Assembly: GCF_000203915.1 (NCBI RefSeq)
Contig: NC_008391.1
Span: forward strand, 1,984,001-2,048,000
DNA from: Burkholderia ambifaria AMMD
Lineage (GTDB): Bacteria > Pseudomonadota > Gammaproteobacteria > Burkholderiales > Burkholderiaceae
Reading direction: 5' to 3'
DNA: 64,000 bases
Shown here: positions 19,043-30,859 of the stretch, piece after piece
Numbering within the stretch: position 1 is the stretch's first letter
Layout of the letters: the number at the start of each line of letters is the position of its first letter
The notes under the pieces: generated by a model
What the model was told of the DNA's origin: nothing
Databases searched by the model: none
Seen by the model: the letters and a program-made list of their open reading frames with translations, nothing else
Made by a program: the position numbers and the translations under genes

Positions 19043-19864
19043 TCAGTCTTCCAGCGTTTCGTGCACGGCCGCCGCGCCGCGCTTCCAGTACGCCGCCGCG
19101 CGGATGCGTGACTTGTCGATGCCGCGCTCGCCGGTCAGGTGCAGGCGCACGGCGCGCATCGACTGCGCTTCACCCGCCGCCCACACATAACCGTCGCCGG
19201 AGGACGGCAGCGGCAGGTCGCGCACTGCATTCAGCAGCGCGTCGCCGTGCGCCGCGTCGGCTTCGGCGCGAAAGCGCCAGATTTCATGCACGTCGGCGCG
19301 CGTATCGAACGCGATCTGCGCGGTCCGATCCGCGACTTCCAGCACGACCGCCGCCCGGGCGCCGGCCGGCAGCTGCTCGAGACGCCGTGCGATCGCCGGC
19401 AGCGCCGTATCGTCGCCGATCAGCAGATGCCAGTCGAAATCGATCGGGACCACGAACGAACCACGCGGGCCGCCGATGCCGAGCCATTGGCCGACGCGAG
19501 CTTGCGCCGCCCACTGCGATGCGGGGCCCGGATGGTTCAGCACGAATTCGAGATCGAGTTCGCAGGCGGCGCGGTCGAAGCGGCGCGGCGTGAAGTCGCG
19601 CGCAATCGGCTTCGGTTCGCCTTCGGGAAACTCGGGGCCGTTCGCGCCGAGCGTCGGCACCGCGGGCCGCTCGGCGCCGGGCGGCGGGAAAAACACCTTC
19701 ACGTGGTCGTCGAACGACGACGATTCGAAATCAGCGAGGTCGGGGCCGCCGAGCGTGACGCGCAGCAGATGCGGCGTCACCGCGTGCACGCGCACGACCT
19801 GCAGCAGGCGGAACTTGAGGGTATGGCGCACGCGGGTCACGGTGCGCTCGGATGTGTTCTGCAT
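19043..19864 (-). CDS. Siderophore-interacting protein (flavin-dependent ferric reductase)
   Basis: A 273-residue cytoplasmic ViuB/SIP-family protein. The N-terminal FAD-binding barrel includes RDFTPRRFD and GPASQWAAQARVGQWLGIGGPRGSF; the C-terminal domain includes LLIGDDTALPAIARRLEQLP and YVWAAGEAQSMRAVRLHL. It releases iron from ferric siderophores using NAD(P)H. The ATG at 19864 is preceded by AAGGAG. It follows the PadR gene by 37 bp and is probably co-transcribed with it, an arrangement seen with PadR-controlled SIP genes. Confidence 0.92.
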   Translation of the reverse strand: MQNTSERTVTRVRHTLKFRLLQVVRVHAVTPHLLRVTLGGPDLADFESSSFDDHVKVFFPPPGAERPAVPTLGANGPEFPEGEPKPIARDFTPRRFDRAACELDLEFVLNHPGPASQWAAQARVGQWLGIGGPRGSFVVPIDFDWHLLIGDDTALPAIARRLEQLPAGARAAVVLEVADRTAQIAFDTRADVHEIWRFRAEADAAHGDALLNAVRDLPLPSSGDGYVWAAGEAQSMRAVRLHLTGERGIDKSRIRAAAYWKRGAAAVHETLED

Positions 19865-19901
19865 CAATCCGTTCTCCTTAGGTTTGGCGGGACGGCGCGG
19901 A

Positions 19902-20615
19902 TTACGCGCCGGTGCCGCCTTCGATTTCGGCCGTCGCGCGGCGCATGATCGCCGCGATGCGCCGTTGTTCGTCGGCGTCGGCGGCGCTCTTGTGCAGCAG
20001 CGCCCGTTTGAGCGCGAGACGCGCTTCGACGAACTCCGGAAGCCAGCCGGGCTGTGCGTCGTCCGGTGCTTCGCTGCCCGCCGATTCGCCGGCGAACGCG
20101 CGGCGCATGAATTCCATCTTGCGCGCGAGGTGCGTGAGGCGCGCGAACAGCGTGTCGACGCGTTCGCGCTGCGCATCGAGATGCGCGCGACCGGCATCAG
20201 TCAGCGCATAGCGCTTGCGATTGCCTTCGGCCTGCGACGCGACGAAGCCGACTTCCTCGAGATACGTGAGCGCCGGATACACCATGCCGGGGCTCGGGCT
20301 GTAGAAGCCGTTCGAGCGCGTGTCGAGCGCCTTGATCAGCTCGTAGCCATGGCTCGGCTGCTCGGCGACCAGCGCGAGCAGCAGCAACTGGAGATCGTCG
20401 GAACTGAACTGGCGGCCGCGCGGCATGCCGTCGTCGCCGAAATCGCCAAAGCCGCCGCGTCCGCCACGGCCGCCGAACGGACCGCCGCCGCCAAAGGGGT
20501 CGTGGCCGCGGCGATGGCGGCCGATTGCGTGCCAGAGGCCGGCGAACCAGTCAGGGGCGGCATGCGGACCATGACCGTCGCATCGGGCATGGCCGCGGGA
20601 GGGGTTGTGTCGCAT
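19902..20615 (-). CDS. PadR-family transcriptional regulator
   Basis: A 237-residue regulator. Residues 1-70 are low-complexity, His/Gly/Arg-rich (GGGGPFGGRGGRGGFGDFGDDG) and could bind metal. The PadR winged helix follows (~70-150: LLLLALVAEQPSHGYELIKALDTRSNGFYSPSPGMVYPALTYLEEVGFV), then a helical dimerisation arm. First gene of the PadR-SIP operon; a palindrome sits directly upstream. Iron or siderophore control is inferred from the partner. Confidence 0.9.
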   Translation of the reverse strand: MRHNPSRGHARCDGHGPHAAPDWFAGLWHAIGRHRRGHDPFGGGGPFGGRGGRGGFGDFGDDGMPRGRQFSSDDLQLLLLALVAEQPSHGYELIKALDTRSNGFYSPSPGMVYPALTYLEEVGFVASQAEGNRKRYALTDAGRAHLDAQRERVDTLFARLTHLARKMEFMRRAFAGESAGSEAPDDAQPGWLPEFVEARLALKRALLHKSAADADEQRRIAAIMRRATAEIEGGTGA

Positions 20616-21425
20616 GATCGTGTCCTATATGTCGGAAAACATATCTAAAGATATATATCGAAAGATAGGGTGTCAAGGACGGATTATTGGGGTTGGATGG
20701 GGGCGTGCGGCTGTGCCGAGCGGCCTGCGGCGCGGATTCCTGTCGGCGCGTTCCGTCGATGTCGTCGTCGGCCCGCTCGCGGCGACCGGACGGCCGGTGC
20801 CGGATCCGGTGTTGCGGTCATTCAATTAATTGATCGCGGCGCACGCGCTTGCCGATGATTTCCCGAAACATTCCGAGTGGCACAGCCGGATTTATGAATA
20901 AATTAATCAATATCAATTATAAAAACACCGGCAACTATTGTTTAAATTCCAGAAATTACTTAATTTAATTATCGCCCGATCAAACAAATTGTCCGCGACA
21001 GCAAAGGCCGTCAAATCCGCCTCGTCATTCAATGACGCATACCGTTGCAGCGCTTGTCTGACGGTCATTTCCGAGGCGATGAAGAATTTCGACCCTTTAT
21101 CCACGACTCTGAAAATTCGTCGAAATGTGAAGCATTGCAATATAAAGCCCCCACGCCGGGTATTCCGGTTGCGATGCGTGATTTAATTTGGCAGGATTTT
21201 CATCAGGTTGTCCGATTTTAAAACAACAAACCGCTCGACAATTCAATTTACCGAAATAACGCGCGGCGCGCCGAGCAACGATTGGAAAGGAAGCTGACCA
21301 GAAAAATGGGGTAAAGAGGCGGCGAACGGCCCACACCGTTCGCGATCATTGAATCAATCGCTTGTCCGGTGGCGTCGATGCGTCACGCGAGCGAGCGATC
21401 CGGGCGAATCCGACACGGGGCGGCC
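20616..21425. other. 810-bp AT-rich intergenic region before the TOMM locus
   Basis: From ~20830 to ~21290 the base composition drops sharply toward A/T, unlike everything around it. Short open frames on both strands near 20913-21186 lack convincing ribosome sites or family features. A perfect 8-bp inverted repeat, GCGAACGG at 21322-21329 with CCGTTCGC at 21336-21343, lies 83 bp before the FHA gene. The region looks like an island border or a silenced promoter region; no RNA or mobile element is recognisable. Confidence 0.55.
20641..20654. promoter_or_regulatory. PadR-type palindromic operator
   Basis: ATATCT-AA-AGATAT, 26 bp upstream of the PadR start, followed by further ATATATCG/AGATA half-sites to ~20668. 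PadR proteins typically bind AT-rich dyads of this shape over their own promoter. Confidence 0.6.
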
Positions 21426-22427
21426 ATGGCGATACTCAAGAATGATTCTTCCGGAGAAGCATGCTTGCTCCGCGCGTATCACGTGTTCGGCCGCGACGAC
21501 GCGCGCTGCGACACGGTCATCCGGGATGGGTCGGTGTCGCGTGTCCATGCCCATATCCGCTGGGTCGGCGGCCTCTGGGAGCTCTACGATCACAGCAGCA
21601 ACGGCACGTCGGTATCGGGCGTCGCGCTGCGCGACGGCGAGCACGCGGTGCTGCACCGCGGCGACGTGATCCGGTTCGGCAGGGCCGGCATTGCACCGTG
21701 GCGTGTCGATACGCTCGACGATCCGGCCGATACGCTATGGCCGATACGAGGCGCCGCGGCCCCGATCGTGCTCGCACCGCGCCAGATCCTGCCTGCCCCG
21801 GCCGCGCAGCCGGTCACGATCGTCCGTTCGCCGGCCGGCGAATGGCTGTGCGACGACACGTTGCCGCCGCGCGCGCTCCACGACGGCGATGAAGTGTCGA
21901 CCGGCGACTTCGCGTGGCGCCTCGCACTCGTGCGCCACGGCTCGACGGTGATGCTCGCCGCACCCGCCGATCCGGCCGCGCCGACGCAATTGCTCGAATT
22001 CTTCGTCAGCCGGAACGAGGAGCACGTGCGCATGCTGCTGCACGTCCGCGGCGGCGTGGTCGACCTCGGCGAGCGCGCCCATCACTACAGCCTCGTCACG
22101 CTCGCCCGCGCACGCGCGGCCGACATGCAGGCCGGCTACGACGCCGCCACGCAAGGATGGATCGAACTTGACCGGCTGGCACGCATGCTCGGCACCGATA
22201 CGTCCCATGTCAACGTGCAGATTCACCGCGCACGGAGCCAGTTCGCGGCGTTGCCGGGGCTGGGCGCGCGCCAGCTCGTCGAGCGCCGGCGCGGCAGCGT
22301 CCGTTTCGGCGATTTTGCATTCCGCGTCATGCGCGGTGACCACCTCGAATGCCAGTCGGTGCCGGCCGTCGGGCCGCGTATCGACGTGCAGCGTGCGGCG
22401 CCGGCCCCGGTTGTCCATTGCCCGTGA
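21426..22427 (+). CDS. FHA-domain protein of the TOMM locus
   Basis: A 333-residue protein. A phosphothreonine-binding FHA domain (~12-90) is clear from FGRDD, SVSRVHAHI and SSNGTSVSG. The middle resembles a second beta-rich or degenerate FHA-like segment (~125-190). Near the C-terminus, GWIELDRLARMLGTDTSHVNVQIHRARSQFAAL (~235-270) looks like a helix-turn-helix. The stop overlaps the GTG start of the kinase gene, so they are translationally coupled. FHA domains often read out kinase phosphorylation, so this is probably a partner or substrate of the kinase. Confidence 0.8.
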   Translation: MAILKNDSSGEACLLRAYHVFGRDDARCDTVIRDGSVSRVHAHIRWVGGLWELYDHSSNGTSVSGVALRDGEHAVLHRGDVIRFGRAGIAPWRVDTLDDPADTLWPIRGAAAPIVLAPRQILPAPAAQPVTIVRSPAGEWLCDDTLPPRALHDGDEVSTGDFAWRLALVRHGSTVMLAAPADPAAPTQLLEFFVSRNEEHVRMLLHVRGGVVDLGERAHHYSLVTLARARAADMQAGYDAATQGWIELDRLARMLGTDTSHVNVQIHRARSQFAALPGLGARQLVERRRGSVRFGDFAFRVMRGDHLECQSVPAVGPRIDVQRAAPAPVVHCP

Positions 22428-25400
22428 ACGCGCGAGAACCGGCCGTATTGCCGACCGCATCTCGTCCGCCGACCGGGCCGGACGCTGCTGCGCCGCGCGA
22501 GCATGCCGCGCCTTTCGCGGCGCTTGCCGGCAAATGGCATTACCGGCTCGGCGCGCTGCTCGGCGAAGGCGGCAACGGCGTGGTGTTTCGCGCGATCTGC
22601 GACGAGACGGGGCAAGATGTCGCGATCAAGCTGATGCGAGACGATGCCGCGCTCAGCGCGGCGGAGCGCGCGCGCCGGCGTGCGCGCTTCCGGCGCGAGA
22701 CGAGCCTGTGCGAGGCGCTGCGGCATCCGAACATCGTGGCCCTGCTCGACCAAGGGCAAGCGCCCGACGGGCGGCTGTTCGCCGTATTCGAACTGGTGCA
22801 GGGCAGGACCGTGCGCGACCGGCTCGCGGCGCAAGGGCCGCTGTCGGCCGTCGACACGGGGCGGCTGATGACGGAGGTGCTCGACGCGCTCGCGGCCGCC
22901 CATCGGCGCGGCATCGTGCATCGGGATCTGAAGCCGCAGAACATCGTGATCACGATGGCCGATGACGGGCCGCACGCGAAGCTCCTTGATTTCGGCATCG
23001 GTGCGTTGCTGCCCGGTACCGACGACGTCGCGCGCGACACCGCGACGCTGGCGACCGAGGTGCTCGGCTCGCCGCCCTATTGCGCGCCGGAGCAATTGCG
23101 CAACGAGCCGCCGACACCCGCCAGCGATCTTTATGCGTGGGGCCTGATCGTAATCGAATGCCTGACGGGCGATGTCGTCATGCAAGGCGCGAGCGTGGCC
23201 GACATCCTCTATCAGCAGCTGAGCCCGGTGGACGTCGCGCTCCCGCCATCGATCGCGTCGCATCCGCTCGGCGCGGTACTGCGCCACGCACTGAACAAGA
23301 ATCCGCAGCAGCGCGCCGCGTCGGCCGACGCGCTCGCGGCGCAGTTTCGCGCGCTCAACTTCGCTGCGCTCGTCGGCCAGTTCGATGCCGGTCGCGCGGG
23401 CCGGCCGATGCCTCCGCGCCCGCTTGCGCACGGCGAGACGATGGCCGCGCTCGGCGAATTCCGACAGATCACCACGCTGTGCTGTTGCGTGGCGATCGCC
23501 GGAGAGGGGCGGCAACGCCATGCCGGCACCGAGCACGGCAATGCGATCGACGGCTACGAGGAACAGTGGCTGACGAAGTGCGCCGATATCGCCGTCGGTT
23601 ACGGCGCGCACGCAGGCGGAAGGCTCGGCGACACGCTGCTGTTCCATTTCGGCCTGCAAGGCGATATCGACCGGCCCGAGCGCCGGGCGGTGCGTGCGGC
23701 GCTCGACATCGTGCGGGTGGCCGGGCGCGCGCGGCTGCCGGTGCCGACGGCGGCCGGCGGCCGCGTTGCCGGGGCAGGAGATAGCTGGCGGGTCGAAGTG
23801 GCGGCCGCGATCCACGTTGGGCAGGCGCTCGCGCATGCGTCGCACATGTCGGGCGGCTCGACGCCCGCCGCGGCGTCGCGGCTGCTGCGGCTCGCCGGGC
23901 CCGGACAGATTCTGATCAGCGACGATGCGCGGCTCGCGCTCGAACGGCATGCCGATTTCCGGCCGACCGCATTGCAGCTGGCGCGGGCGGGCCTCGCGCC
24001 GCAGCCGGTTCACGAGTTGCTCGGCGAGCGGCACGCCGATACGCCGTTCGATTCGCTCGACGCCGGCATGCGTGCACCGATGGTCGGCCGCGCGCGCGAG
24101 CTCGACGCGCTGCTGCACGCGTGGCGGGAAACGCAAGGGCGCCATCGTCGCGCGATGCGCGGCGAGCCGGCGCCGCACGGTGTGCCGCGGCTCGTCGTCG
24201 GCGAGGCTGGGCTCGGCAAGTCGCGGCTCGTGCACGCGTTGTGCGAAGCCGTTCGGGACCGGGGCCACGCGTTCGCGCATTGCGGGTGCCTGCCCGAGCG
24301 GGAGAACCACGCGCTGTTTCCGGTCCTGCGGTTCATCGGCGCGCATTGGCATATCGATGCCGATAGCCCGCCCGGCATCGCGCTCGCGGCGATCGATGCG
24401 ATGATCGCGCCGCTCGATTGCGATCATGCGGCCGCCCGGCTCGCGCTCGCGACCTGGCTGGGGCTGCCCTGCGATGCGAAGGGGCTCCTGTGGTCGAGCG
24501 TGCGCGAGCAGCACGCGTTGTTCGATGTCCTCGAGCAACTGATCGTGTCGCTCGGCAACGGCGCGCCGGTCTTGCTCGTGATCGAGGACGTTCAATGGCT
24601 CGATCGCTCGACCGAGGACTTTCTCGCGTATCTGCAGCGCTCGCCGCGCGCGGCGGCCCTGGGCATCGTGCTCACGTCGCGCCCCGACAAGCTCGCGCGC
24701 TGGCGCGGCGCGACCGACCGCGTGGTGCTGCGCCGCCTGCCGCGCGACGACGCGCAGCGCCTGCTGTCGGCGCATCTGGGCGAGGGCGCGTTCGATCCGG
24801 CGTGGCTCGACCGGCTTGCCGATCGCACGGCAGGTATCCCGCTGTTTATCGAGGCCGTCGCGCGCGAATTGACGATGAGCGGCGCGGACGGCTCGCCCGC
24901 GGCCCCGGGGGCAACGGACCCTTATCCGCTTCCGCTCAGTCTCGGCGGCATGCTCGGTCTTGCATTCGACCGGATCGACGGCGCGCGCGACACCGCGCAG
25001 CTCGCCGCGACCATCGGGCTCGAGGTGGATGCGCAACTGCTCGCCGACGCATCGCCGCACGATCGGGGCACGCTCGACGCGCATCTGCGGCTGCTGCTCG
25101 AAGAGCGGATCGTGTATGCGCAGCATCGGCGCGATCGCGTGTTCTATTCGTTCCGCCATGCGCTGATTCGCGATGCCGCGTATGAATCGATGCCGCCGGC
25201 CGTGCGGCGCGGCAATCACGCGCGCGTCGGCCGTACGCTCGTCGCGCAAGCCGATCGCGGCGCCGGTGCGCATGCGTTCGGCGTCGCCGGGCACTTCGCG
25301 CGCGCAGGCGCTTGGGCGGAGGCGATCACCCACGGCATCGACGCGGCGCGCCGCGCACTCGAACGTTCCCGGTACGACGACGCGATCCGCTACGGGCAGA

Positions 25401-26470
25401 CCGTGTTCGAATGGCTCGGCACGGCCGACTACGCGCAGCGCGAGCACGACAGTGCGCGTATCCGCGCCACGTTGACGCACGCGACGATGGCGCGGTTCGG
25501 CTGGGCGGATCCGCAGGTGCGCGAGCATGCGGAGCAGTTGCTGCGGCAAATGCAGACGCTCGACGATCCGGAACTCGAGATCAGCGCGTTATGGACGCTG
25601 TCGACCTACTACCACGTCGCGGGCGATCGTCCCACCGTGCGCGGGATCGGCCTGCGGCTCGACGCGCTCGCGACCGAGCGCGGCGATGCCGGCGTTCAGG
25701 TCGCGGCGGACGCGATGCGCGGCATGAGCCTGTGGGTCGACGGCCACTATGCGCGCGCCCGCGCCGCGTTCGACGCGGTGCTGGCCGGCTATGACGTGCG
25801 GCGCGACGCGGGCCACCGGCGCATCCTGGGGCTCGATACGCGCGCATGGACGATGGCATCGCTCGCGAGCGTGCGCTGGTGCATGGACGACGACCCGCAG
25901 GCCTCGCTCGCGATGGCGCGCGAAGCCGTGTATTGCGCGACCTGCCTCGACCATTTGCCGACGCTCGGCGTCACGATGCTGTACCTCGCACGCACGTACC
26001 AGCTCGCGGGCGATCGCGACGCGGCGCGATCGTTGTCGGTAGCGCTGCTTCGGCTGTCCGAGGCGCACCGGCTGCGCGCGGTCGGGCACTACGCCGCGAT
26101 CATCCATGCGTGGACGCAAGAGGATCGCGCGGGCGTTGTCGCGCATCTCGATGCGCAGCGGCAGTCGGGCGGCCTGCTCGGGCTGACCTACTACGCGTCG
26201 CTGCTTGCCGAGCTGGATGCCGCGCGCGGCGACTACGGCGCCGCGCTCGCGCAGATCCGGCAATGCCTCGCATGGTGCGAGTCGACCGGGGAACGATATT
26301 ACGAAGCCCAGCTGTTGCTGAAGGAGTGCGAGTACCTGCGCCGGGCCGATCCGCGCTGCGGCGGCGTGGCCGCGCTGGACGCGTGCCGGCGCGCAGTCGA
26401 AATTGCAACGACGGCGGGCATGGGCCGGATCGCCAGGCTCGCCGAAGCCACGTTGCAGTCGTTGCCGTAA
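22424..26470 (+). CDS. TOMM-system kinase/cyclase-like/ATPase/TPR fusion protein
   Basis: A 1348-residue fusion. Residues ~38-310 form a Ser/Thr kinase with an intact P-loop (GEGGNGVVF), VAIK, HRDLKPQN (~166), DFG and APEQ. Residues ~345-540 align with class III nucleotidyl cyclases (GRLGDTLLFHFG, AAIHVGQALAHAS, PGQILISDDAR), but the first metal-binding Asp is absent (LCCCVAIAGEG), so activity is doubtful. From 553 comes a STAND/AAA ATPase: VGRARELDALL, Walker A GEAGLGKSR (593), Walker B LLVIEDVQWLD (~720). The last ~450 residues are TPR-like. I recall a family named for TOMM systems with this layout. GTG start overlaps the FHA stop. Confidence 0.85.
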   Translation: MNAREPAVLPTASRPPTGPDAAAPREHAAPFAALAGKWHYRLGALLGEGGNGVVFRAICDETGQDVAIKLMRDDAALSAAERARRRARFRRETSLCEALRHPNIVALLDQGQAPDGRLFAVFELVQGRTVRDRLAAQGPLSAVDTGRLMTEVLDALAAAHRRGIVHRDLKPQNIVITMADDGPHAKLLDFGIGALLPGTDDVARDTATLATEVLGSPPYCAPEQLRNEPPTPASDLYAWGLIVIECLTGDVVMQGASVADILYQQLSPVDVALPPSIASHPLGAVLRHALNKNPQQRAASADALAAQFRALNFAALVGQFDAGRAGRPMPPRPLAHGETMAALGEFRQITTLCCCVAIAGEGRQRHAGTEHGNAIDGYEEQWLTKCADIAVGYGAHAGGRLGDTLLFHFGLQGDIDRPERRAVRAALDIVRVAGRARLPVPTAAGGRVAGAGDSWRVEVAAAIHVGQALAHASHMSGGSTPAAASRLLRLAGPGQILISDDARLALERHADFRPTALQLARAGLAPQPVHELLGERHADTPFDSLDAGMRAPMVGRARELDALLHAWRETQGRHRRAMRGEPAPHGVPRLVVGEAGLGKSRLVHALCEAVRDRGHAFAHCGCLPERENHALFPVLRFIGAHWHIDADSPPGIALAAIDAMIAPLDCDHAAARLALATWLGLPCDAKGLLWSSVREQHALFDVLEQLIVSLGNGAPVLLVIEDVQWLDRSTEDFLAYLQRSPRAAALGIVLTSRPDKLARWRGATDRVVLRRLPRDDAQRLLSAHLGEGAFDPAWLDRLADRTAGIPLFIEAVARELTMSGADGSPAAPGATDPYPLPLSLGGMLGLAFDRIDGARDTAQLAATIGLEVDAQLLADASPHDRGTLDAHLRLLLEERIVYAQHRRDRVFYSFRHALIRDAAYESMPPAVRRGNHARVGRTLVAQADRGAGAHAFGVAGHFARAGAWAEAITHGIDAARRALERSRYDDAIRYGQTVFEWLGTADYAQREHDSARIRATLTHATMARFGWADPQVREHAEQLLRQMQTLDDPELEISALWTLSTYYHVAGDRPTVRGIGLRLDALATERGDAGVQVAADAMRGMSLWVDGHYARARAAFDAVLAGYDVRRDAGHRRILGLDTRAWTMASLASVRWCMDDDPQASLAMAREAVYCATCLDHLPTLGVTMLYLARTYQLAGDRDAARSLSVALLRLSEAHRLRAVGHYAAIIHAWTQEDRAGVVAHLDAQRQSGGLLGLTYYASLLAELDAARGDYGAALAQIRQCLAWCESTGERYYEAQLLLKECEYLRRADPRCGGVAALDACRRAVEIATTAGMGRIARLAEATLQSLP

Positions 26471-26503
26471 GCAGTCCCATTCGTCATTCAGGAGAGCAGA
26501 CCG

Positions 26504-26848
26504 ATGAGCAAGGATCTTCGATTACCGACGTACGATCAGTTTCTCGAATACCGCGCGACCGTCATCCGGGCGATCGCGCTCGCATGGCATTCCCCGGCAT
26601 TTCTCGACGAACTCGAGAACGATCCGGTCAACGCATTGCGCGAGCATTTCGACTATCACTTTCCATTCAAGCTCGACCTGAAGGTGCAGATCAAATCGTC
26701 GGCGTGGACGCCGACCGTCAACGGCGACTGGACCGCCGGCCACAAAAACAAGCTGACGCTGTATTTGCCGCCCGCGCCGGCGGACGAGGCGCAATTCGCG
26801 CAGGCGCTGGCCGCGTACAACGCGAACCACATCACCATCATGGAATGA
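26504..26848 (+). CDS. TOMM precursor-like protein 1 (nitrile-hydratase-leader type)
   Basis: A 114-residue protein of the nitrile hydratase alpha-subunit-like leader class (FLEYRATVIRAIALAWHSPAFLDELENDPVNALREHFDYHFPF). It is the same length class as the next gene and shares its layout. It has no cysteine at all and ends AAYNANHITIME, so it has little for a cyclodehydratase to modify. It may be a degenerate precursor, a leader-only partner, or a precursor modified on Thr/Ser. Strong AGGAG 10 bases before ATG. Resembles the BMA_0021/BMA_0022 TOMM family as I remember it. Confidence 0.75.
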   Translation: MSKDLRLPTYDQFLEYRATVIRAIALAWHSPAFLDELENDPVNALREHFDYHFPFKLDLKVQIKSSAWTPTVNGDWTAGHKNKLTLYLPPAPADEAQFAQALAAYNANHITIME

Positions 26849-26864
26849 CTTCGGGGAAACCGAC

Positions 26865-27227
26865 ATGGCAAAGGACAACGCTAATCCGACGCTCGAATCG
26901 ATGCTGGAGTTTCAGAAGGTCTATCTGCGTGCGATCGCGCTTTCATGGCGGGACCCGGCATTCAAGCGCGAACTGCTGGACAAGCCGCTGGATACACTCG
27001 CGAAATACTTCGGCTACCAGTGTCCGTGGATCCTCGACATCGAGATCGAGAAGACGCACGGCGATCATGGCTGGACGAGCGACGGGAAAGGCGGCGGGAG
27101 CTGGAACCTGCCGCGCAACGTGATGACGGTCGGCATACCGGAGCAACCGACGAATCTTGACGAGGAGGCCGTTGCGCTCGCGGCGTACTGCGACGCGGGG
27201 CCGTGTTACCTGTTCACCTGCTGCTGA
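26865..27227 (+). CDS. TOMM precursor peptide 2 with Cys-rich core
   Basis: A 120-residue NHLP-type precursor paralogous to the preceding gene (LEFQKVYLRAIALSWRDPAFKRELLDKPLDTLAKYFGYQCPW). The last 13 residues, YCDAGPCYLFTCC, hold four Cys and one Thr and are the likely core converted to thiazolines/oxazolines. The leader/core boundary is not marked by a clear GG site. The gene ends just before an intrinsic terminator, as expected for a precursor expressed more strongly than its enzymes. Confidence 0.85.
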   Translation: MAKDNANPTLESMLEFQKVYLRAIALSWRDPAFKRELLDKPLDTLAKYFGYQCPWILDIEIEKTHGDHGWTSDGKGGGSWNLPRNVMTVGIPEQPTNLDEEAVALAAYCDAGPCYLFTCC

Positions 27228-27254
27228 TCCGGCGCGGCCGAGCCGCGTACCCCA

Positions 27255-27296
27255 CGCGCGGCCCCGGGGCGGTTGCCCGGGCCGCGCGACGTTTTT
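27255..27296 (+). terminator. Intrinsic terminator/attenuator between precursor and cyclodehydratase genes
   Basis: A perfect 10-bp stem, CGCGCGGCCC (27255-27264) with GGGCCGCGCG (27279-27288), is followed by ACG and TTTTT at 27292-27296. It lies 27 bp after the precursor stop and 26 bp before the cyclodehydratase ATG. Partial read-through would give more precursor than enzyme mRNA. Confidence 0.8.
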
Positions 27297-27321
27297 CCGA
27301 CCCGCCGCACGGAACCAGACG

Positions 27322-29559
27322 ATGCTCGATGACCTTTCGCGCGTGTTGCGCTTCAAGCCGCATTTGCTCGTGCTCGATGCGGGGCCCGAGACCCTGTTCG
27401 TCGTCGACGAGTTCAAGCGCACGATGCTGTCCGGTGCGATCTTCGTGCGGATCGCCGCGTGCCTGCGGGCGCGCATGACGACCGCCGAGATCGTGACGAC
27501 GCTTGCCGGCACGTTCGGCGAATGGGACGTGCTCGCGCGGCTCGACCACCTGGTGCGCCGCGGCTACGTGCGCGCCGATCCGCCGCACGACGACGATGCC
27601 GCGCGCGGCTTCTTCGAGCGCGCCGGGCTCGACGGTGACGCGGCTTGCGCGCGCGTCGTTCAACTGCGCGTCGCGGTCGAGGCGTTCGGTGCCGACGATG
27701 CGGCGCTCCGGCGCGCGCTCGACACGGCCGGCATCGATGTCGTGCCGGACGCCGAACTGACCGTCGCGATCGCCGATACGCACGATCGCGACGATCTCGC
27801 CGCGTGCGCCGAGCGCGTGGCGGCGCGCGGCGGGGCATTGCTCCTTGTGGCGGCCGGTGGCGTGCAGACGCTGATCGGGCCGTTGCTGGCCGGCGGCGGC
27901 GCGCTGGCCGATGCGCCGTGCATCGAATGCGTGCGCTACTGGATTCGCATCAACCGGCCGGTCGAGACACTGCTTGCGCGCCATCACGGCAGCGCGGCAA
28001 CGCGTCTGCCGCCGGCCGCGTCGCGTGCCGGCGCCGCTGCCGCCGCGGCGTTCGTGGCGGCGACGGTCGAGCAGATCGCGGTCAACCGCACGATAGCGGA
28101 ACGTTCGCAAACGCATATCGTGGCGCAGCGCATCGATACGTTGACCGTCGAACGGCACCGCGTGATCAGGCGTCCGCAATGCCCGTGCTGCGGCAAACCC
28201 GCATGGATGCGCGAGCAGGCGGCGCGTGCGCCGCGGCTCGCCGATCATGCGCCGTTGACGCGCGCCGACGGCGGCTACCGTACCGCCGACCCGCAACAGG
28301 TGTTCGAGCGTTATGCCCATCTGATCTCGCCGGTCAGTGGCGCGATCGCGTATCTGCACCCGATGCCGAAGCGGCACGCGGGCCTGCGCAAGGTCTATGC
28401 GTCGGGCTTTCTCGTGTGCCCGGCCGCCGTACCGGGCAGCAACCGGTTCGACAGGATTTGCTCCGGCAAGGGCCGCACCGACGAGCAAGCCCGCGTGAGC
28501 GCGCTATGCGAAGCGCTCGAACGATTCAGCAGCGTGTATCAGGGCGACGAGGCGAGGCTGACCGGCAGCATGGAAAGCCTGCTCGCCGATCAGGCTTGCG
28601 ACGCCGAGCCCATCCACGTGAATGAGCTTCAGCAGTTCAGCGAACGGCAATTCGCGGCGCGCGACGCGATCAACGCATTGACCCGCGATGTCCGCAAGCA
28701 GGTGCCGCCGCGCTTCACGTCGCGCGACGTGATCGACTGGACGCCTGCATGGTCGCTCGTGAGCGGCCGGCGCCGCCTCGTGCCGCTGAGTTACTGCTAT
28801 GCGGAAACGCCGGACAGTGCACAGGCGCCGGCCGCGTGCGTGCACAACCCCAACGGCTGCGCGGCGGGTTCGAGCATCGACGAGGCGATTCTGCAAGGCA
28901 TGCTCGAGTTGATCGAGCGCGATGCGGTCGCGATCTGGTGGTACAACCGGCTTGCACGCCCCGGCATCGATCTCGCGAGCTTCGATGATTCGTATTTCGA
29001 TGCGCTCGTGCGCGAATACGCGACGCTCGGGTGGCGTTTGTGGGCGCTCGACATCACCACCGATCTCGAGGTGCCGACCGTGGCCGCGCTCGCGGAAAAT
29101 CCGCAAGACGGGCGCTTCTCGATCGGTTTCGGCTGCCATCCGGACGGTCGGATCGCGGTGCAGCGGGCACTGACCGAAGTCAACCAGTTGCTCGATGTCG
29201 CCGCGGATGCGCCGCATCCGTGGGACCGCGACAAGCTCCCGGCAACCGGATTTTTGTATCCGGCGGCCGGCGCGCGTGCAACGACGCGTTCGACTTGGGA
29301 ACCGGTCGAGGCCGCGTCGCTACCGGCAGCGCTCGCGCATTGCATCGGGCGCATCGCGGCGGCCGGCATGGACGTGCTCGTCGTCGACAAGACGCGGCCC
29401 GACATCGGCTTGTCCGTGGTGCAGGTCATCGCGCCGGGGCTGTGTCATTTCTGGCCGCGGTTCGGCGCGCGACGGTTGTATTCGGTGCCGGTCGAACGCG
29501 GTTGGCGTGCGCAGCCGTGCGACGAGATGGAGCTGAATCCGGCGCTGCTGTTTCTGTGA
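27322..29559 (+). CDS. Fused TOMM cyclodehydratase (E1-like/leader-binding + YcaO)
   Basis: A 745-residue fusion. The N-terminal ~330 residues form the leader-binding, ThiF/E1-like partner with a probable zinc tetrad (CIEC at 200-203, CPCC at 287-290). The rest is a YcaO domain: SGKGRTDEQARVSALCEALERFSS (~381-404) and SSIDEAILQGMLELIERDAVAIWWYNR (~520-545) supply ATP/Mg residues. It ends LNPALLFL rather than the PxPxP seen in many YcaO cyclodehydratases. It would use ATP to convert Cys/Thr of the precursor to azolines. ATG at 27322 is preferred over upstream in-frame starts because it falls after the terminator. Confidence 0.9.
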   Translation: MLDDLSRVLRFKPHLLVLDAGPETLFVVDEFKRTMLSGAIFVRIAACLRARMTTAEIVTTLAGTFGEWDVLARLDHLVRRGYVRADPPHDDDAARGFFERAGLDGDAACARVVQLRVAVEAFGADDAALRRALDTAGIDVVPDAELTVAIADTHDRDDLAACAERVAARGGALLLVAAGGVQTLIGPLLAGGGALADAPCIECVRYWIRINRPVETLLARHHGSAATRLPPAASRAGAAAAAAFVAATVEQIAVNRTIAERSQTHIVAQRIDTLTVERHRVIRRPQCPCCGKPAWMREQAARAPRLADHAPLTRADGGYRTADPQQVFERYAHLISPVSGAIAYLHPMPKRHAGLRKVYASGFLVCPAAVPGSNRFDRICSGKGRTDEQARVSALCEALERFSSVYQGDEARLTGSMESLLADQACDAEPIHVNELQQFSERQFAARDAINALTRDVRKQVPPRFTSRDVIDWTPAWSLVSGRRRLVPLSYCYAETPDSAQAPAACVHNPNGCAAGSSIDEAILQGMLELIERDAVAIWWYNRLARPGIDLASFDDSYFDALVREYATLGWRLWALDITTDLEVPTVAALAENPQDGRFSIGFGCHPDGRIAVQRALTEVNQLLDVAADAPHPWDRDKLPATGFLYPAAGARATTRSTWEPVEAASLPAALAHCIGRIAAAGMDVLVVDKTRPDIGLSVVQVIAPGLCHFWPRFGARRLYSVPVERGWRAQPCDEMELNPALLFL

Positions 29560-29602
29560 CATGACCGCGGGCGCGTCGGCGTCGGCGGCGGCGGAACGCG
29601 CC

Positions 29603-29641
29603 GGGCGGACCGATTCGGCCCGCCCGGTGCCGCCGGGCACC
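29603..29641. terminator. Double hairpin between convergent TOMM and aidA genes
   Basis: GGGCGG (29603-29608) pairs with CCGCCC (29620-29625), followed directly by GGTGCC (29626-29631) pairing with GGCACC (29636-29641). There is no strong T-run on either side. Probably ends the cyclodehydratase transcript or separates the convergent genes. Confidence 0.45.
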
Positions 29642-29685
29642 GCGTGCGGATCATGCCCCGGCCATGTCGAGGTGCCCGTTCGGCA

Positions 29686-30261
29686 TTACTGGCTGATGAT
29701 GGTGAGGTACGCATCCCAGGTGACGTAGCCCTTCAGTTGCGCGTGCCGGTCGTAAATGGCGGCGACGAACGCATACGTTTCGTTGTTGCCGGGGCAGAGC
29801 ACGGTCGCTTTCGCGTAGTAGTCCGCGCGTGCTTCCTCGTTCACGGTGTTGTTATCGGGCCAGCCCCGCGCCGGATAGGGCTCCGTGCTGTTGTCGGTGA
29901 GGTACGAAACGTAGCCGAGCAGATTGGCGGTCTTCGGAACGAAGTTATACAAGAAGCACTTGTATTCGGCCGTGCCGGTCAGCGACACGGTACGCCAGCG
30001 GATCACGTCGTCGACCTGGGCCTTGATCCGCAGATTGCTGCCGCCTTCGCCCTCGTTCTGTCCCGACGTCGTGCCCTGGCCGAAGCCGTACGCCGCATTC
30101 GCCAGCGTGGTGATCATGTACACGGTATCGGGATTGTTGCCGAGCGACGTTGGCTGGTCCGGATGCTGGCTGAGCGAGTTGTTGTTGCTCTTCAGGATCT
30201 CGTCGACATCGAACGCGATCAGCACATCGACGATTTTGAAGGTATCCAAGATCTTGGGCAT
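29686..30261 (-). CDS. aidA: AidA/PixA inclusion-body family protein
   Basis: A 191-residue soluble protein starting MPKILDTFKIVDVLIAFDVDEIL, with NPDTVYMITTLANAAYGFGQGTTSGQNEGEGGSNLRIKAQVDDVIRWRT and a C-terminal AAIYDRHAQLKGYVTWDAYLTIIS, the PixA/AidA family pattern. In B. cenocepacia, AidA-family proteins are quorum-sensing-regulated and linked to nematode killing (established for named members, not shown here). Two in-frame paralogue genes often sit together, but only one is seen here. Convergent with the TOMM locus. Confidence 0.85.
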   Translation of the reverse strand: MPKILDTFKIVDVLIAFDVDEILKSNNNSLSQHPDQPTSLGNNPDTVYMITTLANAAYGFGQGTTSGQNEGEGGSNLRIKAQVDDVIRWRTVSLTGTAEYKCFLYNFVPKTANLLGYVSYLTDNSTEPYPARGWPDNNTVNEEARADYYAKATVLCPGNNETYAFVAAIYDRHAQLKGYVTWDAYLTIISQ

Positions 30262-30859
30262 GGCAGTTCCTTTCACGCTTTCTCGTTGAAAAACACTCTG
30301 CTGAGTGACGACGCCCGTGGCATCTGCATCTCTCCCATCCTGCGAAGCGGCGCTTGCGGAGAAGGCGGCGCGCGGAAGAGTATCGACAGCGTACGAAGGA
30401 TCGATCCGCGAATCGATTACACACGCTTACAGCACGCGTGCAGGTGAATCCTGCATCCGGTGCGCGGATGTCCCGGCGTCGCGGGAACCCGTGTCCTGCA
30501 GAGGGCGGATATGTCGATGCTTCGTACTCCGGGATCTGCCGATGTCGATCGACACGCTGAGCGATTTCGCCGGCTGGGCGGACAAGCTCGAAAGCCGGCA
30601 GATTCCGACCGGCTGCTTCATGGGGCGCCCGACGGTCAACTACACCGTCGCAGTGCCGCGATACGGGACATGAGGGGAGCAGAGGCGCGGTAGTCGCCGT
30701 CGAGCGAGATGAAAGCCGCGACCCGAACCGGCGCGGCGCCTTCGTCGTCGGGCAATCCGGATTCGCGCAACATTGGGCTCGTGGAGGCCGCGAAAAGCCT
30801 TGCAGCAGGACGCTGCGATCCGCCCGACACGTCAGCGCAATCGCACCATACGGATTACA
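30262..30859. other. 598-bp intergenic region upstream of aidA
   Basis: Contains the aidA promoter region. I could not pick out a convincing LuxR-type (cep) box by eye. A 43-codon frame at 30542-30673 is listed separately. No RNA or mobile element is seen. Confidence 0.45.
30542..30673 (+). CDS. Possible 43-residue peptide or gene remnant
   Basis: ATG at 30542 opens MSIDTLSDFAGWADKL and closes after ...PTVNYTVAVPRYGT. The amino-acid make-up is protein-like, but there is no good ribosome site and no recognised family. It may be the end of a decayed gene or chance. Confidence 0.25.
   Translation: MSIDTLSDFAGWADKLESRQIPTGCFMGRPTVNYTVAVPRYGT

What the first reader, a model, noticed from the sequence alone, without database searches (positions are those of the whole stretch)
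21426..29559. Signalling-coupled TOMM (azole/azoline peptide) system
FHA protein, kinase/cyclase-like/ATPase/TPR giant, two nitrile-hydratase-leader precursors and a fused cyclodehydratase are consecutive on one strand with coupled starts. Placing a phospho-signalling module upstream of a peptide maturation enzyme suggests that maturation or export is gated by phosphorylation. Families resembling these have been predicted bioinformatically, but to my knowledge the product and the role of the kinase are undescribed.
Basis: partly seen in the sequence, partly recalled or inferred. Interest (0 to 1): 0.85.

Follow-up and report, generated by a model that had tools for sequence, protein, structure and literature searches.

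The report
Kinase-regulated azoline peptide gene cluster
This Burkholderia gene cluster, predicted in 2010 and with no laboratory test that I could find, should make a small modified peptide beside its own protein-kinase switch, and related bacteria that lost the peptide genes but kept the switch suggest that the switch does more than control peptide making.

Summary
Window 21426-29559 encodes, on one strand, an FHA protein, a kinase/cyclase-like/ATPase/TPR giant (TIGR03903, 1957.6 bits, cut-off 705.75), two nitrile-hydratase-leader precursors (TIGR03795) and a fused leader-binding/YcaO cyclodehydratase (TIGR03882+TIGR03604). This is the 'NHLP-Burk' TOMM cluster of Haft, Basu and Mitchell 2010, who name B. 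ambifaria and the large kinase: a known kind, with no product or kinase role found in print.

Added here: (1) FHA accompanies the cluster in 63 of 70 loci, six misses at contig ends; (2) the cyclase-like domain lost its first metal Asp in 65 of 66; (3) precursor 2's end (..YLFTCC) is its most conserved part, not a hypervariable core; (4) loci whose precursor ends in one Cys carry a carboxyl-methyltransferase-family gene (22 of 22; 0 of 48 with CC; one clade split); (5) precursors and YcaO were lost about five times while FHA and kinase stayed, in one clade with undiminished purifying selection on both.

Point 5 speaks against a kinase that only gates maturation; no exporter gene was recognised. 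I favour a kinase-FHA regulatory pair with a probable DNA-binding output, the peptide being one output.

The parts
21125..21201 (+). Two conserved upstream elements, 21125-21143 and 21186-21201; the second holds a 13-bp stretch identical in 16 of 16 aligned loci
   Evidence: Alignment of 16 genus loci, 6 of them peptide-less; in the own genome the first has no second site within 3 mismatches, the second only 11 further sites, all at 3 mismatches, with 6 for the backward control
21322..21343 (+). Conserved inverted repeat GCGAAC-N10-GTTCGC before the FHA gene; operator or RNA leader hairpin (inferred)
   Evidence: 18 of 100 shuffles of the window hold at least one such site, so its weight comes from conservation
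21426..22427 (+). FHA protein, 333 aa: N-terminal FHA domain, second beta-rich part, C-terminal 188-311 with winged-helix-like topology
22424..26470 (+). Giant: Ser/Thr kinase (about 22541-23344), degenerate cyclase-like part, AAA_16 ATPase (about 24083-24652), C-terminal region read as TPR; start GTG 22424 or ATG 22349
26504..26848 (+). Precursor P1, 114 aa, NHLP-type, no Cys at the C-terminus
   Evidence: TIGR03795 148.2 bits
26865..27227 (+). Precursor P2, 120 aa, NHLP-type leader; predicted core at 27174-27224 ending Phe-Thr-Cys-Cys
   Evidence: TIGR03795 161.3 bits; nitrile hydratase alpha and MprE7 relatives; tail conservation
27255..27288 (+). GC-rich hairpin between P2 and the enzyme gene, tail ACGTTTTTCC; possible attenuator or stabilising hairpin (inferred)
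   Evidence: 23 of 35 loci beat shuffles at p<=0.02, window p 0.03; 9 of 21 pairs with changes on both sides in 11 sequences; window alone z -1.28
27322..29559 (+). Fused leader-binding domain (TIGR03882, about 27838-28347) and YcaO cyclodehydratase (PF02624, about 28462-29442)
   Evidence: four Cys invariant in 65 of 65

Best explanation
It is an NHLP-Burk type TOMM (linear azoline peptide) operon with its own phospho-signalling pair. Likely working: the giant kinase, held in check by its STAND-like ATPase and C-terminal part, is released by an unknown signal and phosphorylates itself at an activation-loop threonine (Thr208 counted from GTG 22424). The FHA protein docks on a phosphothreonine of the kinase and through its C-terminal winged-helix-like domain acts on transcription, at least of its own operon. 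P1 and P2 are folded leader proteins. The YcaO enzyme binds P2, perhaps as a P1-P2 pair, and cyclodehydrates the C-terminal Cys-Cys to thiazolines (up to -36 Da). The hairpin behind P2 keeps precursor output above enzyme output. The kinase-FHA pair also has a role that does not need the peptides. Shown by sequence: gene content, catalytic residues, conservation, losses, constraint. Inferred: autophosphorylation, docking, DNA binding, ring formation, hairpin effect, the signal.
For: Family matches over cut-off. Components recur together in 70 loci. Kinase and ATPase residues 66 of 66, cyclase metal Asp lost in 65 of 66; activation-loop Thr208 in 65 of 66, one gap. FHA domain closest to EmbR FHA, C-terminal topology winged-helix-like, weak HTH hits. 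Conserved upstream elements, kept in 6 of 6 peptide-less loci aligned. P2 tail mean identity 0.89 against 0.64 for the rest; FTCC or FTC-type end in 70 of 70 loci (two species with FSCC). YcaO-NHLP ring formation is an established reaction (PMC12455567, first of three parts). Peptide-less FHA-kinase loci. A two-chain TOMM protein rises in stationary phase in B. thailandensis (PMC12322963, passages).
Against: No biochemistry. The FHA C-terminal domain has no sequence match in the PDB and its Pfam HTH hits are weak; its fold was not searched alone. Upstream elements are not shared with other places in the own genome, so no regulon is visible. In peptide-less loci the ATPase and cyclase-like parts relax (dN/dS 0.32 and 0.31 against 0.22 and 0.21) and three of them have longer tips than their sisters, which partly fits slow decay. 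No FHA gene was found in L111. B. singularis keeps precursors and enzyme with a giant that lost its middle.
Confidence: 0.5

Rival explanations
1. One reading: the kinase directly gates peptide maturation or export by phosphorylating the cyclodehydratase or the precursors, with FHA as docking adaptor.
For: Tight linkage of kinase, FHA, precursors and enzyme in two gene orders; FHA domain and active kinase residues.
Against: FHA and kinase stay constrained after precursors and enzyme are gone; B. singularis keeps the peptide genes with a broken giant; no exporter recognised.
Confidence: 0.2
2. The peptide is the input, not the output: the modified P2 tail is an intracellular ligand sensed by the ATPase/C-terminal part of the giant, which then signals through FHA.
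For: The nearly invariant tail from Burkholderia to Desulfobacterota fits one receptor better than a diversifying toxin; in the clade L141-L145 the C-terminal part of the giant is gone together with the peptide, and the ATPase part relaxes.
Against: L137 and L138 lack the peptide but keep a full-length giant. The loss of the C-terminal part is explained by the same deletion.
Confidence: 0.15
3. The kinase is a biosynthetic enzyme that phosphorylates Ser/Thr of the core, as in class III/IV lanthipeptide synthetases.
For: Weak kinase-domain similarity to LanL and LanKC models.
Against: 89.1 and 47 bits against cut-offs 650 and 575; no lyase recognised; kinase kept without precursors.
Confidence: 0.05
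4. The signalling pair and the peptide genes are merely neighbours with unrelated functions.
For: FHA-kinase survives without the peptide genes.
Against: 26 of 26 genus genomes with precursors have FHA and the association holds over distant lineages and two gene orders.
Confidence: 0.07

Closest known systems
NHLP-Burk TOMM clusters (Haft, Basu, Mitchell 2010, PMC2887384; NCBIfam TIGR03795, TIGR03903, TIGR03882)
   Same: Tandem precursors, one ending Cys-Cys, cyclodehydratase fusion, large Ser/Thr kinase; B. ambifaria named (passages).
   Different: FHA is not mentioned there. The methyltransferase variant and the peptide-less loci are not in the passages that I saw.
NHLP-YcaO systems such as MprE/MprC (PMC12455567, first of three parts)
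   Same: Folded nitrile-hydratase-like leader, RRE-YcaO enzyme making azolines; P1/P2 profile matches the MprE7 leader 8tb1, E 0.0018.
   Different: Mpr has ten precursors and a flavin oxidase MprD; here two precursors, a short fixed tail, and no oxidase recognised in the annotated ORFs.
EmbR-type FHA regulators with a Ser/Thr kinase (PknH-EmbR, recalled)
   Different: FHA is N-terminal here, and only PF00498 and a sub-cut-off PF16697 are found by Pfam at E<=0.001.
AfsK-AfsR (AfsR: listing and start of abstract of PMC10936776 only; rest recalled)
   Same: Kinase, ATPase-TPR module and a DNA-binding output near secondary metabolism.
   Different: Here the ATPase part is fused to the kinase, and the putative DNA-binding part to FHA.

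Membership tests
NHLP-Burk TOMM cluster | Tandem TIGR03795 precursors | tested here: met
   148.2 and 161.3 bits, cut-off 41
NHLP-Burk TOMM cluster | One precursor ending in Cys-Cys or Cys | tested here: met
   P2 ends FTCC
NHLP-Burk TOMM cluster | Leader-binding/YcaO fusion | tested here: met
   TIGR03882 and TIGR03604 over cut-off
NHLP-Burk TOMM cluster | Large kinase (TIGR03903) | tested here: met
   1957.6 bits, cut-off 705.75
NHLP-Burk TOMM cluster | Azoline rings in the product | not testable with these tools
   Needs mass spectrometry
EmbR-like FHA transcription regulator | FHA domain | tested here: met
   PF00498 60.8 bits
EmbR-like FHA transcription regulator | DNA-binding winged helix | tested here: inconclusive
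   Topology in the model, weak HTH hits in 7 of 14 members, no PDB sequence match
EmbR-like FHA transcription regulator | Bacterial transcriptional activation domain (recalled as part of EmbR) | tested here: not met
   No such Pfam hit at E<=0.001; so not filed as an EmbR family member
Class III nucleotide cyclase | Both metal-binding Asp (positions recalled) | tested here: not met
   First lost in 65 of 66, second Asp in 56 of 66
Class III/IV lanthipeptide synthetase | Score over the LanL/LanKC model cut-offs | tested here: not met
   89.1 of 650 and 47 of 575 bits

The most novel reading that the evidence does not exclude
The heart of this locus is an autonomous kinase-FHA switch. The peptide is not a bacteriocin but a conserved intracellular azoline signal or cofactor-like product: a C-terminal bis-thiazoline in Burkholderiaceae and Desulfobacterota, and a thiazoline methyl ester, made with a leucine-carboxyl-methyltransferase-like enzyme, in the Variovorax-Delftia group. 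It feeds back on the ATPase and C-terminal part of the kinase and can be dispensed with once the switch is rewired.
Probability: 0.17. Interest if true: 0.8.

Novelty: already known. Interest (0 to 1): 0.5.

Why it matters
The cluster has been a named prediction since 2010, and my ten searches of an open-licence paper library found no product and no kinase role. Two facts make it directly testable. The predicted core is nearly invariant, so one mass shift settles the chemistry (-36 or -18 Da on P2; -18 then +14 Da in the Variovorax-Delftia group). And natural relatives keep the kinase-FHA pair without the peptide genes, so the pair's own targets can be sought in peptide-free backgrounds. If right, it is a phospho-signalling switch attached to a RiPP pathway in Proteobacteria.

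Tried and rejected
Bacteriocin with a hypervariable core: PMC4603692 (passages) calls NHLP and Nif11 cores hypervariable, but here the P2 end is the most conserved part.

Nucleotide-cyclase signalling by the giant: the first metal Asp is lost in 65 of 66.

A regulon sharing the upstream motifs: own-genome scans gave no convincing second site. Other genomes were not scanned.

Anti-phage system: the 25 PADLOC hits shown of 33 for the giant lie in its kinase part; none for the other four proteins.

Exporter beside the genes: of ten flanking ORFs of L071 two had Pfam hits, EAL/GGDEF and polysaccharide synthesis; window flanks gave PixA, AraC-type regulator, aldehyde dehydrogenase, siderophore-interacting protein and PadR. 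Flanks of most loci were only compared with each other, not annotated.

Fold of P2: Foldseek gave no match better than E 1.5, top rows a proteusin RiPP and nitrile hydratases; the sequence profile was more informative. Fold of the FHA C-terminal part: the list is filled by FHA domains, so this part is untested.

Energy of the window hairpin alone is not unusual (z -1.28); a consensus scan found no terminator there. Only the comparison of loci supports it.
Full report
WHAT IS THERE. The window is G000:C3:1984001-2048000 of a 7,528,567-base genome in 4 contigs. From recall this fits Burkholderia ambifaria AMMD; no call verified the strain. On the + strand lie FHA (21426-22427), a kinase giant (22424-26470, or from ATG 22349), precursor P1 (26504-26848), precursor P2 (26865-27227) and a fused cyclodehydratase (27322-29559). 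NCBIfam puts the giant, both precursors and the enzyme over curated cut-offs. One SagD-family match is found in the genome.

PRIOR KNOWLEDGE. PMC2887384 (passages) describes TIGR03795 precursors as tandem pairs in Burkholderia including B. ambifaria, one member ending Cys-Cys or Cys, fused in Delftia and Acidovorax, near a cyclodehydratase fusion and with 'a large, Ser/Thr kinase'; FHA does not occur in its text. PMC4603692 (passages) repeats this and calls NHLP/Nif11 cores hypervariable. PMC4513790 (one passage) names NHLP-Burk in a tree legend. PMC12455567 (first of three parts) shows that NHLP leaders are folded and that a YcaO enzyme acts on them. PMC12322963 (passages) lists B. thailandensis BTH_I0516, 'Ribosomal natural product, two-chain TOMM family', up 2.21 log2 in the stationary-phase proteome, and BTH_I0515, 'ABC transporter ATPase', up 2.08; that the latter is the giant is only my guess from gene order. 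Ten full-text searches found no experimental work on the product or the kinase; the library holds open-licence papers only.

DISTRIBUTION. A precursor profile found 42 named loci in Burkholderia, Paraburkholderia, Trinickia, Variovorax, Delftia, Curvibacter, Acidovorax, Paracidovorax and two Desulfobacterota. FHA was found in 63 of 70: six misses (L084, L102, L119, L122, L126, L132) run off a contig, the seventh (L111, Desulfoluna) has none in 20 kb. Order is FHA-kinase-P1-P2-YcaO in Burkholderiaceae and Desulfatitalea, and kinase-precursors-methyltransferase-YcaO-FHA in the Variovorax-Delftia group. The giant is over cut-off in 4 of 300 genomes of the order, own one included. The precursor family matches 3 of 398 genomes of the phylum sample, 2 over cut-off, own one included.

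CATALYTIC STATE. Five of 70 loci (L084, L085, L102, L108, L126) had no giant piece over 1000 bits and were dropped; 65 plus the window remain. VAIK Lys, HRD Asp, DFG Asp, Walker A Lys and Walker B Asp are present in 66 of 66. The first cyclase metal Asp is replaced in 65 of 66 (kept in L089); the second is Asp in 56 of 66 (motif roles recalled). Activation-loop Thr208 is Thr in 65, gap in 1. The giant of L080 (G308) is split by a stop. The enzyme keeps four Cys in 65 of 65, and ends LN..LLFL or LNP..LYV; the PxPxP tail of other cyclodehydratases (recalled) is not seen.

PRECURSORS. The P1/P2 profile matches nitrile hydratase alpha chains (best E 6.4e-10) and the MprE7 leader 8tb1 (E 0.0018). 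The P2 model (pLDDT 78) is helical with a low-confidence tail 114-120. Over 17 P2 sequences mean column identity is 0.89 for residues 104-120 and 0.64 for 1-103; Tyr115, Phe117 and Cys119 are invariant. Of nine P1 sequences aligned, eight have no Cys in the tail; L104 has one four residues before its end.

METHYLTRANSFERASE VARIANT. Between precursor and YcaO the Variovorax-Delftia group carries a PF04072 gene (leucine carboxyl methyltransferase family), E 4e-8 to 2e-15 in five tested, and below the cut-off of TIGR00027 in three tested. A profile of seven of these genes matches in 22 of 22 loci whose precursor ends in one Cys and in 0 of 48 ending Cys-Cys. It is one clade split, not many independent events. 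A C-terminal methyl ester is inference.

PEPTIDE-LESS LOCI. Over the same 65 genus genomes, precursors occur in 26, the giant over cut-off in 34 and FHA in 36 (G355 is cut by a contig end, G336 has a broken giant). All 26 and all 34 have FHA. Nine have FHA and giant but no precursor match: two full-length (L137, L138) and seven whose giant ends behind the ATPase part (L139-L145). YcaO remnants remain in L138 and L140. L141, L142, L143 and L145 share one junction, window about 25304 to 30436. On a FastTree of FHA plus giant from 33 loci the nine fall in five places; L141-L145 form a clade with support 1.000, while several deeper nodes are weak (0.31-0.60). Kinase and ATPase residues are kept in 9 of 9. 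Median pairwise dN/dS (NG86), four same-junction loci (6 pairs) against 15 intact loci (105 pairs): FHA 0.139 and 0.184; kinase 0.217 and 0.234 (intact range 0.109-0.652); cyclase-like 0.306 and 0.210; ATPase 0.323 and 0.215. No stop lies in the compared codons; the one stop that one search counts in each of G306 and G328 lies in a read-through match that goes beyond the open frame used here. So FHA and kinase stay constrained after the loss, while the ATPase and cyclase-like parts relax, and the tips of L137, L138 and L140 are longer than those of their sisters. In B. singularis (L108; L085 is the same record) precursors and enzyme stay while the giant lost its middle, with kinase and C-terminal pieces in different frames.

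REGULATORY DNA. Upstream of FHA 16 loci, 6 of them peptide-less, share elements at 21125-21143, 21186-21201 and 21322-21343. The P2-YcaO hairpin beats shuffles at p<=0.02 in 23 of 35 loci; the window has p 0.03; L103, L106 and L112 show none. In 11 aligned sequences 9 of 21 pairs, 8 of them in the main stem, have changes on both sides.

MECHANISM. I read giant plus FHA as a kinase-FHA regulatory pair with a probable DNA-binding output, and P1/P2/YcaO as one thing it controls. The peptide-less genomes show that the pair is kept without the peptide, not what it does there. Direct gating of maturation stays possible where both exist.

SCORES. The cluster is known as a prediction and the recalled species is named in it, hence 'already known'. 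The retained kinase-FHA pair, the invariant core and the methyltransferase variant bring the interest to 0.5.

Noticed in passing
window 29686-30276 (-): PixA/AidA-type inclusion body protein (PF12306) convergent behind the enzyme gene; also beside the cluster in 9 of the 25 other genus loci with precursors and in L106 Paraburkholderia.
   Followed up: partly
L121 10260-11192, L113 10263-11204, L129 10349-11206, L087 6197-7078 (-), L123 9769-10821: Leucine carboxyl methyltransferase family gene between precursor and YcaO, only where the precursor ends in one Cys.
   Followed up: yes
L137-L145: Burkholderia genomes with FHA and kinase giant but without precursors and enzyme, about five independent losses.
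   Followed up: yes
G000:C4:307321-310359 (L090): A second relative of the giant in the own genome, matching positions 279-1266 of TIGR03903 without the kinase part.
   Followed up: no
L113 15199-15789; L116 14354-15097: Downstream of FHA in Variovorax: a phage-tail-collar-domain protein and a protein without Pfam match.
   Followed up: no
L071 2624-5011 (-), L062 2678-5059 (-): EAL/GGDEF protein near the enzyme gene in these two loci.
   Followed up: no
L108 and L085 (B. singularis): Giant lost its middle part while precursors and enzyme remain.
   Followed up: partly
window 19043-20615 (-): Siderophore-interacting protein and PadR-type regulator upstream of the cluster.
   Followed up: no
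L111, L112: Kinase, precursor and YcaO set in two Desulfobacterota contigs with the same YLFTCC end; origin not examined.
   Followed up: partly
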